A DNA stretch of 64,000 nt, taken from the NCBI RefSeq assembly GCF_900215335.1, contig NZ_OCMT01000002.1, positions 186,001 through 250,000 of the forward strand, given 5' to 3'. A program made the position numbers and the translations under genes. Shown piece by piece: positions 26,611 through 27,074 of the stretch; position 1 is the stretch's first letter; each line of letters begins with the position of its first letter. The stretch comes from Pedobacter xixiisoli. Lineage in GTDB: Bacteria; Bacteroidota; Bacteroidia; Sphingobacteriales; Sphingobacteriaceae. Under the pieces are notes generated by a model. The model ran no database searches and was not told the origin of the DNA. It saw nothing but the letters and a program-made list of their open reading frames with translations.

Positions 26611-26642
26611 TTTGTATTAAAACAAAAAACATCCTATATTTG
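26611..26642 (+). promoter_or_regulatory. Consensus Bacteroidota promoter of the met operon
   Basis: TTTG at 26611-26614, a 20-base spacer, and TATATTTG at 26635-26642 match the -33/-7 consensus fully. Transcription should start near 26648, about 40 bases before the SAM riboswitch. Confidence 0.75.
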
Positions 26643-26688
26643 AAACATTATTTGGAGAACCAAATAAAAGTCAATTACCTTACGGTTG

Positions 26689-26803
26689 TTGATTTATAAA
26701 GAAGTGGCGAGAGACAGGCTCACTGACCCACTGGCAACCCTCAAAAAGAGAAGGTGCCAATTCCTGACCAAATTGCATGGTGCATTTTGGAAATATAAAT
26801 TAA
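26689..26803 (+). promoter_or_regulatory. SAM-I (S-box) riboswitch
   Basis: The core pattern GAAGTGGCGAGAGACAGGC, ACTGACCCACTGGCAACC (GGCAACC at 26733-26739), then GGTGCCAATTCC at 26753-26764 fits the S-box aptamer. The closing helix P1 pairs TTGATTTATA (26689-26698) with TATAAATTAA (26794-26803), ten base pairs with one G-U. SAM binding should stabilise P1. P1 ends only four bases before the ATG of the Cys/Met-rich leader ORF, and no classical terminator follows directly, so the output may act on that start codon or through the leader. Confidence 0.88.
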
Positions 26804-26807
26804 TAAG

Positions 26808-26942
26808 ATGAAACTAATTAATTCTATTTCTTCAAGAAACACGTTTCCCGAGCAGGTCGGACAAAACTCTATTTGTAATTCTATTAGTTGCAATTGTTGT
26901 AATATTCAATCAATGATGTGTATGTGCATTCGCATGTACTAA
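26808..26942 (+). CDS. Cys/Met-rich leader peptide, 44 residues
   Basis: A short ORF from ATG 26808 to TAA 26940-26942, between the SAM riboswitch and metY. The first 22 residues hold no Cys and no Met after the start. The last 22 residues hold six Cys (23, 28, 30, 31, 38, 40) and four Met (36, 37, 39, 43), including the run MMCMCIRM. This is the composition expected of an attenuation leader that senses charged Cys- and Met-tRNA. A hairpin (26920-26939) overlaps the last codons. It has no signal peptide or domain and is unlikely to act as a finished protein. Function is inferred from composition and position. Confidence 0.7.
   Translation: MKLINSISSRNTFPEQVGQNSICNSISCNCCNIQSMMCMCIRMY
26920..26939 (+). 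promoter_or_regulatory. Hairpin over the final Cys/Met codons of the leader ORF
   Basis: GTATGTGC (26920-26927) pairs with GCATGTAC (26932-26939) around a four-base loop, eight pairs including two G-U pairs. A ribosome stalled on the Cys/Met codons would block it. A T6 run lies about 27 bases downstream (26966-26971), too far for a standard terminator. Confidence 0.45.
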
Positions 26943-27074
26943 AATCAAAAATCTTCCACTTGTAATTTTTTCAAACACATTAGGAAGGCCCTATCAAACG
27001 GGTACGCAACATCAAGTTATGCCCAACATTAGGCTAAAATAAATCTAAATCGTAAATCTAAACTCGTAAATCAA

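What the first reader, a model, noticed from the sequence alone, without database searches (positions are those of the whole stretch)
26611..27074. SAM-I riboswitch followed by a Cys/Met-rich leader ORF in front of metY-metX-hom
Directly seen: a consensus promoter, an S-box aptamer, then a 44-codon ORF whose last 22 residues include six Cys and four Met, whereas the first 22 have none after the start. Known: such residue bias marks attenuation leaders, and S-box RNAs sense SAM. Inference: the operon is tuned both by SAM and by supply of charged Cys- and Met-tRNA, a two-layer control I have not seen described for this arrangement. The 132 bases after the leader ORF hold no other gene.
Basis: partly seen in the sequence, partly recalled or inferred. 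Interest (0 to 1): 0.85.

Follow-up and report, generated by a model that had tools for sequence, protein, structure and literature searches.

The report
SAM riboswitch feeding a cysteine-sensing leader
In front of a methionine-making operon, and in many relatives in its bacterial class, a SAM-sensing RNA is followed at once by a tiny reading frame that ends in cysteine codons, so the cell likely checks SAM first and then cysteine supply before making methionine.

Summary
A Bacteroidota-type promoter (26610-26642), a SAM-I aptamer (26691-26801, 74.8 bits) and a 44-codon ORF (26808-26942) precede metY-metX-hom. Of 163 distinct metY-linked SAM aptamers, 161 are followed within 17 nt by an ATG ORF (median spacer 8 nt); 138 have at least 3 Cys in the last ten codons. 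Shuffles predict 0.14, and 35 other SAM aptamers have none. The arrangement occurs in seven families of the class, including Pedobacter, Mucilaginibacter, Hymenobacter and Chryseolinea. Cys codons use both TGT and TGC; the rest of the peptide is not conserved. Behind the stop lie lineage-specific hairpins and a steady distance to metY (median 131 nt), but rarely a terminator (9 of 155, against 20 of 35 at other SAM aptamers). In one genome metY itself sits in the leader's slot. I infer a serial device: SAM blocks translation of the leader; when SAM is low, the ribosome on the Cys codons reports Cys-tRNA, likely keeping metY on when cysteine is short. The sign and the last step (Rho or translation) are untested. 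New variant of a known kind.

The parts
26610..26642 (+). Bacteroidota-type promoter motif, TTTTG ... TATATTTG
   Evidence: Pattern read directly. A strict pattern was found upstream of 21 of 37 related aptamers; the other 16 read ACATTTG, just outside the pattern.
26691..26801 (+). SAM-I (S-box) riboswitch aptamer
   Evidence: RF00162, 74.8 bits, E 1e-15
26808..26942 (+). Leader ORF, 44 codons, Cys/Met-rich second half, ATG 6 nt after the aptamer
   Evidence: an ORF in the same place after 161 of 163 distinct metY-linked aptamers
26920..26939 (+). Hairpin over the last Cys/Met codons (GTATGTGC ATTC GCATGTAC), predicted
   Evidence: Minimum-energy fold; the RNAalifold consensus of 37 related loci has a hairpin over the same codons
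26952..26988 (+). Post-leader stem 1: TCTTCC (26952-26957) with GGAAGG (26983-26988)
   Evidence: In the window's minimum-energy fold. Five of its six pairs never vary in 31 distinct Pedobacter sequences, so they say nothing there; a changed but complementary version ATTTCC/GGAAAT in L053
26989..27007 (+). Post-leader stem 2 and TACGC: CCC (26989-26991) with GGG (27000-27002); only 3 bp in this genome
   Evidence: Covariation in 31 distinct relatives: 4 of 5 pairs with changes on both sides, 97.9% of cells paired. The window's own minimum-energy fold pairs this stretch otherwise.
27075..28373 (+). metY, O-acetylhomoserine sulfhydrylase
   Evidence: TIGR01326, 690 bits, cut-off 495
28404..29462 (+). 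metX, homoserine O-acetyltransferase
   Evidence: TIGR01392, 338 bits, below the curated cut-off of 500
29574..30815 (+). hom, homoserine dehydrogenase
   Evidence: NF004976, 311 bits, cut-off 205

Best explanation
A SAM-I riboswitch is followed directly by a short ORF with a Cys-rich end, and the pair likely works as a serial gate in which SAM blocks translation of the leader and, when SAM is low, ribosome stalling on its Cys codons would keep metY-metX-hom on. Shown: the order of the parts, their conservation in several families, the strict spacing, the Cys enrichment at the stop, and the rarity of a terminator. Inferred step 1: the SAM-bound P1 stem, whose 3' strand lies within the ribosome landing region of the leader ATG, prevents initiation. 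Inferred step 2: with SAM low the leader is translated; if Cys-tRNA is plentiful the ribosome finishes and leaves, and if it is scarce the ribosome waits on the last codons. Inferred step 3: the waiting ribosome prevents an inhibitory event just downstream of the leader (Rho loading on the C-richer spacer, or an occluding fold), so metY is made only when both SAM and cysteine are low. Step 3 and its sign are the weakest points.
For: 161 of 163 distinct metY-linked aptamers have the ORF and 138 the Cys-rich end; expected 0.14, and 0 of 35 non-metY aptamers. Cys frequency is 0.45-0.67 at codons 1-5 from the stop against 0.014 in the first 15 codons; TGT 411 and TGC 301 in the last 12 codons. In 28 disjoint pairs, Cys codons changed 15 times synonymously and 18 times not, with differences at codon positions 9, 10, 20, against 156, 155, 192 in the other codons. 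Spacer 5-11 nt in 152 of 161. L126: metY starts 10 nt after the aptamer, in the leader's slot (one genome). Terminator-like sites, by a rule of my own, in 9 of 155 against 20 of 35 at other SAM aptamers. Post-leader covariation in two lineages and excess folding, mean z -1.56 over 154 loci. Cys/Met-rich ORFs also precede some metY genes that lack the aptamer; four of these (L157, L159, L161, L242) have a strong hairpin plus T-run, judged by eye, and a classical attenuator there would turn on when Cys is short. C exceeds G after the stop in 144 of 154. A cystathionine beta-synthase-like gene makes homocysteine a possible Cys precursor.
Against: No translation, stalling or expression data. The leader body shows no coding constraint in 16 Pedobacter leaders (pN/pS 0.78; differences at codon positions 1, 2, 3: 1095, 1174, 1182), and there the Cys run is nearly invariant at the DNA level, so RNA folding also constrains it. 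Five of six leaders of one genus (g39) miss the Cys rule. Of 14 class-level loci outside the family with an aptamer, 4 (L146, L147, L155, L160) miss it, and 7 of 21 metY places read there lack the aptamer. Two of five covariation measures for the Pedobacter stems did not exceed shuffles (382 and 491 of 500). Complementarity of leader to terminator in the aptamer-free relatives was clearly better than chance in one of four tested (L159, 2 of 1000 shuffles; the others 60, 155 and 399). The C excess could be ordinary: 0.61 against 0.51 in a control from one window only. The beta-synthase-like gene is under its cut-off (486 of 510 bits), and all 14 control genomes also gave sub-threshold matches.
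Confidence: 0.55

Rival explanations
1. Completion gate with the opposite Cys sign. metY is expressed only if the leader is translated to its stop, by reinitiation or coupling across the folded spacer, so scarce cysteine turns metY off and sulfide is saved for cysteine.
For: Steady distance from leader stop to metY (median 131, quartiles 121-147) with folded spacers; a B12 riboswitch controls a uORF whose translation is required for PPE2, mainly through reinitiation (PMC11260477); MetY competes with CysM for sulfide (pathway knowledge).
Against: It does not explain why the Cys run sits at the very end. The distance is long for reinitiation; the PPE2 passages call for a tight stop/start overlap. 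The aptamer-free relatives look like attenuators of the other sign.
Confidence: 0.25
2. The Cys codons are a by-product of an RNA fold (UGUUGC repeats pairing downstream) and the frame is not translated.
For: Hairpins over the Cys codons in Pedobacter; GCAACA opposite UGUUGC in Cytophagales; near-invariant DNA in close Pedobacter relatives.
Against: TGT and TGC interchange; synonymous changes are 15 of 33 at Cys codons against my own estimate of about a sixth for random change of a TGY codon; the frame is open from a fixed start to a Cys-rich end in 138 of 163 with differing spacers; CGAATG is in frame in 31 of 31 leaders that hold it.
Confidence: 0.08
3. The leader encodes a working small Cys-rich protein, for example a metal or thiol binder, co-regulated with metY.
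For: Cys-rich ends; in some relatives the next gene looks like an OsmC-like or peroxiredoxin-like protein (named by recall).
Against: Body and length vary freely (19-63 codons); no NCBIfam or Pfam match above cut-off for ten leaders; not seen after 35 other SAM aptamers.
Confidence: 0.04
4. The SAM aptamer acts on its own, by transcription termination or mRNA decay, and the leader is a separate Cys/Met attenuator that merely happens to follow.
For: Each module occurs without the other: aptamers with terminators (20 of 35) and Cys leaders without an aptamer.
Against: Terminators are rare between leader and metY (9 of 155); the fixed 5-11 nt spacing; metY in the leader's slot in L126.
Confidence: 0.08

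Closest known systems
Polycysteine leader ORFs of Actinobacteria (PMC1262725, passages; Canestrari et al. 2020 seen only as cited in other papers)
   Same: Runs of Cys codons near the stop of a short upstream ORF, no conserved terminator hairpin, sulfur genes downstream; Rho was suggested.
   Different: In front of cys operons or cbs in Actinobacteria, the mycobacterial ones leaderless; no riboswitch in what I read. Here it sits behind a SAM-I aptamer in front of metY in Bacteroidota.
uORFC-8-2 motif (PMC8632094, passages)
   Same: uORF with tandem Cys codons proposed as a ribosome-mediated attenuator.
   Different: Upstream of cysS in Rhodobacterales, two Cys codons usually at positions 14 and 15, terminator-like U run, no riboswitch mentioned.
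B12 riboswitch and uORF of M. tuberculosis ppe2 (PMC11260477, abstract and passages)
   Same: A riboswitch controls translation of a short ORF, and the downstream gene depends on it.
   Different: Different ligand; tight stop/start overlap and reinitiation; no amino-acid codon run in what I read.
SAM-I riboswitch of Xanthomonas sensing uncharged initiator tRNA (PMC7270179, abstract)
   Same: SAM-I leader of a met operon with a second, tRNA-related input.
   Different: The tRNA is bound directly by the expression platform and frees a Shine-Dalgarno sequence; no leader peptide in the abstract.
SAM-II riboswitch of Sinorhizobium metA (PMC9373788, abstract and passages)
   Same: A SAM riboswitch whose neighbouring AUG1 is not the start of the gene, with translation beginning at a distance (AUG2, 74 nt downstream).
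   Different: AUG1 and AUG2 are in one frame, with a terminator between them; SAM-II class; no Cys run in what I read.
trp-type leader-peptide attenuators (recalled; PMC9723704, passage, reports clues for leader-peptide attenuation in Flavobacterium)
   Same: Regulatory codons in a short ORF read amino-acid supply.
   Different: Those depend on alternative hairpins ending in a U-run terminator, missing in most composite loci here.

Membership tests
SAM-I (S-box) riboswitch | Match to RF00162 above the gathering score | tested here: met
   74.8 bits against 44.4
SAM-I (S-box) riboswitch | Binds SAM and changes expression | not testable with these tools
   Needs in-line probing and a reporter
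Ribosome-mediated leader-peptide attenuator | Short ORF with a run of codons for an amino acid tied to the operon, conserved | tested here: met
   138 of 163 with at least 3 Cys in the last ten codons; the window's own leader has 2 there and 6 in its last 22
Ribosome-mediated leader-peptide attenuator | Codon-level conservation of the regulatory residues | tested here: met
   TGT 411 and TGC 301 in the last 12 codons; 124 identical, 15 synonymous, 18 nonsynonymous at 157 Cys codon sites
Ribosome-mediated leader-peptide attenuator | Intrinsic terminator between leader and gene, with a rival fold | tested here: not met
   Terminator-like in 9 of 155 composite loci, the window not among them; so it is not filed as a classical terminator attenuator
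Ribosome-mediated leader-peptide attenuator | Leader is translated and stalls | not testable with these tools
   Needs ribosome profiling or reporters
Actinobacterial polycysteine leader | Cys run next to the stop, no terminator | tested here: met
   for most relatives; analogy of form only, no homology claimed
Actinobacterial polycysteine leader | Leaderless transcript | tested here: inconclusive
   The promoter motif ends at 26642 and the ORF starts at 26808, which speaks against it, but the transcript start is not mapped
Riboswitch-controlled uORF | uORF start inside reach of the ligand-bound stem | tested here: met
   Spacer 5-11 nt in 152 of 161
Riboswitch-controlled uORF | Downstream gene depends on uORF translation | not testable with these tools
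   Needs a start-codon mutant reporter

The most novel reading that the evidence does not exclude
A widespread two-input RNA gate of Bacteroidia: a SAM riboswitch whose output is not the gene but the translation of a cysteine-sensing leader peptide, so that metY answers only to SAM and cysteine together, without a transcription terminator and with lineage-specific folds doing the last step.
Probability: 0.5. Interest if true: 0.85.

Novelty: new variant of a known kind. Interest (0 to 1): 0.74.

Why it matters
If right, a riboswitch and a leader peptide form one serial device in at least seven families of Bacteroidia, placed where sulfide is committed to homocysteine and absent from the 35 other SAM aptamers examined. 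It would show how a cell can ask two questions (SAM, charged Cys-tRNA) with one ribosome, in a phylum where translation initiation rarely uses Shine-Dalgarno sites (recalled). The natural variants (aptamer alone, leader alone, leader without Cys, metY in the leader's slot) make the logic directly testable.

Tried and rejected
Rfam at a lenient threshold on 26802-27100 gave three matches far below gathering scores. The post-leader element of Pedobacter (model R1) was sought in 59 genomes, the window's own included, as a possible independent riboswitch: its 33 strong matches are the 33 loci it was built from; weaker ones, such as 27.5 bits in G024, were not followed. The Cytophagales element (model R2) matched 9 of 47 loci, namely the 8 it was built from and L219, a copy of L144, and 1 of 198 genomes, that of L144. 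Pairing of ATCTTCC with the 3' end of the aptamer (GGAAAGAT) as an antiterminator is possible in Pedobacter, but ATCTTCC hardly varies there and is replaced in other genera, so it was not tested. A first alignment of the Cytophagales element had wrong coordinates and was redone. NCBIfam and Pfam gave no family for the leader. Met sensing was kept as an open minor part. Structure prediction and the large protein search were not used. Eight full-text searches, of which I saw the listings (titles and starts of abstracts) and passages of some papers, showed no paper describing a SAM-I aptamer followed by a Cys leader in Bacteroidota; the library holds open-licence papers only and lists were capped, so absence from print is not shown.

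Full report
Observation. The window carries one Rfam match above gathering score, a SAM-I aptamer at 26691-26801 (74.8 bits). It is preceded by a Bacteroidota-type promoter motif (26610-26642) and followed 6 nt later by an ATG ORF of 44 codons (26808-26942). Then come 132 nt and metY, metX and hom (27075-30815). The last 22 residues of the ORF hold six Cys and four Met, the first 22 none after the start.

Conservation in the genus. RF00162 was searched in the window's genome (2 places) and in a set of 59 genomes, the window's own included (55 with a match). I fetched 40 stretches. Every one of the 37 rows that lead into metY or metX, 36 of them in the window's genus (the window included) and one in another family (L071b), has an ATG ORF 5-9 nt after the aptamer, in most cases ending in a CMCCC-like run. 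The second SAM aptamer of the window's genome lies before a gene that I recognise by recall as metH (L002) and has no Cys leader (L033).

Conservation in family and class. MetY matched in 92 of 121 genomes of the family search and 29 of 198 of the class search. I read 60 of the 92 family places; 52 carry the aptamer. Outside the family I read 21 of 23 class places (20, plus L071b); 14 carry the aptamer and 10 of these have the Cys run, in families f2, f15, f31, f39, f41 and f49. With the window's own family f1 that makes seven. A scan of named genomes kept the best 80 loci of 587, 76 with the aptamer by nhmmer. After removing duplicates 163 distinct loci remain: 161 have the ORF within 17 nt and 138 have at least three Cys in the last ten codons. 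Dinucleotide shuffles give 0.14 expected, against 132 observed before aptamer ends were corrected; 35 aptamers not linked to metY give one ORF and no Cys run. Named carriers of a Cys-run leader include Pedobacter, Mucilaginibacter, Daejeonella, Hymenobacter, Chryseolinea, an Adhaeribacter MAG and Microscillaceae, Cyclobacteriaceae and Flammeovirgaceae MAGs. The loci share ancestry and Pedobacter is over-represented, so the count is not a number of independent events; grouping by shared 8-mers leaves 150 groups, 126 with the Cys run.

What is conserved. Spacer 5-11 nt in 152 of 161, ORF 19-63 codons (median 39), stop to metY median 131 nt. Cys frequency is 0.50, 0.45, 0.67, 0.67 and 0.63 at codons 1 to 5 from the stop and 0.014 in the first 15 codons; Met peaks at codon 6 (0.43); TGT 411 and TGC 301 in the last 12 codons. 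In 28 disjoint pairs, Cys codons changed 15 times synonymously and 18 times not, with differences at codon positions 9, 10 and 20; other codons 156, 155 and 192. Against a conserved protein: 16 Pedobacter leaders of 42 codons show equal change at the three codon positions and pN/pS 0.78. So position, frame and Cys codons are kept, not the peptide. That is the signature of a regulatory leader.

What follows the stop. In Pedobacter a stem TCTTCC/GGAAGG, five of six pairs invariant, and a second stem with covariation (38 cells with changes on both sides and a covariation score, each reached by 0 of 500 shuffles; the numbers of pairs and of pair types did not exceed shuffles). Its strong matches lie only at this locus. 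In Cytophagales another fold with a GTGA loop (5 of 11 pairs with changes on both sides in 8 sequences), also seen only there. Over 154 loci the first 100 nt after the stop fold better than shuffles (mean z -1.56; 62% below -1). Terminator-like sites are rare (9 of 155) and common after other SAM aptamers (20 of 35).

Variants that inform the mechanism. L126 has no leader: metY starts 10 nt after the aptamer, which suggests that the aptamer controls translation of whatever ORF sits there; this is one genome. In genus g39 all six leaders read keep the slot, but five miss the Cys rule and end in RMR or RMC. L146 and L147 have short ORFs without Cys. Of 19 metY regions read without an aptamer (two loci appear twice), six (L148, L150, L157, L159, L161, L242) have Cys/Met-rich ORFs like those of the composite; the others have none or weak candidates. 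Four of the six have strong hairpins with a T-run, judged by eye, and in L159 the leader downstream of the Cys codons is complementary to the terminator over 9 nt (2 of 1000 shuffles; the other three at 60, 155 and 399).

Mechanism. High SAM must mean low metY (S-box logic, established). If the aptamer blocks leader initiation, an untranslated leader must be off. A ribosome waiting on the Cys codons is then the state that differs from both no ribosome and a ribosome that has finished, and the aptamer-free relatives would be on in that state. I therefore favour on only when SAM and cysteine are both low, by protection of the region behind the leader, perhaps against Rho (C over G in 144 of 154 spacers). 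The rival, in which the leader must be finished, gives the opposite Cys sign and is not excluded. A cystathionine beta-synthase-like gene (486 bits, just under its cut-off of 510; sub-threshold matches occur in all 14 control genomes too) would make homocysteine a source of cysteine and fits the favoured sign, but cysE and cysM lie next door.

Known work. Cys-run leaders without terminators are known in Actinobacteria (PMC1262725, passages), Cys uORFs before cysS in Rhodobacterales (PMC8632094, passages), riboswitch-controlled uORFs in M. tuberculosis (PMC11260477, abstract and passages), a SAM-II riboswitch with a decoy AUG in Sinorhizobium (PMC9373788, abstract and passages) and a SAM-I leader that also senses a tRNA in Xanthomonas (PMC7270179, abstract). 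None of the listings or passages seen describes the combination found here. It is a new variant of known kinds.

Noticed in passing
31 of 161 leaders, e.g. L220, L143, L088, L129, L114: The codon pair CGA ATG recurs before or at the Cys run, always in frame (31 of 31), and Arg before that Met is mostly CGA, even in Hymenobacter. It may be a slow site; unexplained.
   Followed up: partly
L157, L159, L161 (no aptamer): Two Cys/Met-rich short ORFs in tandem before metY, the second followed by a strong hairpin with a T-run.
   Followed up: partly
L144, L219, L234; L236, L241: The leader is followed first by another gene, apparently OsmC-like or peroxiredoxin-like (named by recall; a family search failed), before metY.
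   Followed up: no
L144, L215, L225, L226, L234, L235, L239, L240: CAACA complementary to the Cys codons, then a covarying hairpin with a GTGA loop, matched only in these metY leaders and a copy.
   Followed up: yes
L112, L114-L117 (genus g39): Leader kept in place but Cys run lost; the end reads CGA ATG CGC/CGT/TGC TAG followed by TCGTC, with a GACGA further on.
   Followed up: partly
window 26489-26552: Perfect 17-bp inverted repeat GCCACAGATGCACAGAT ... ATCTGTGCATCTGTGGC between cysE and the metY promoter, read from the sequence.
   Followed up: no
window 23178-26389: A cystathionine synthase/lyase-family gene, cysM and cysE lie beside the operon, so the sulfur genes are clustered.
   Followed up: no
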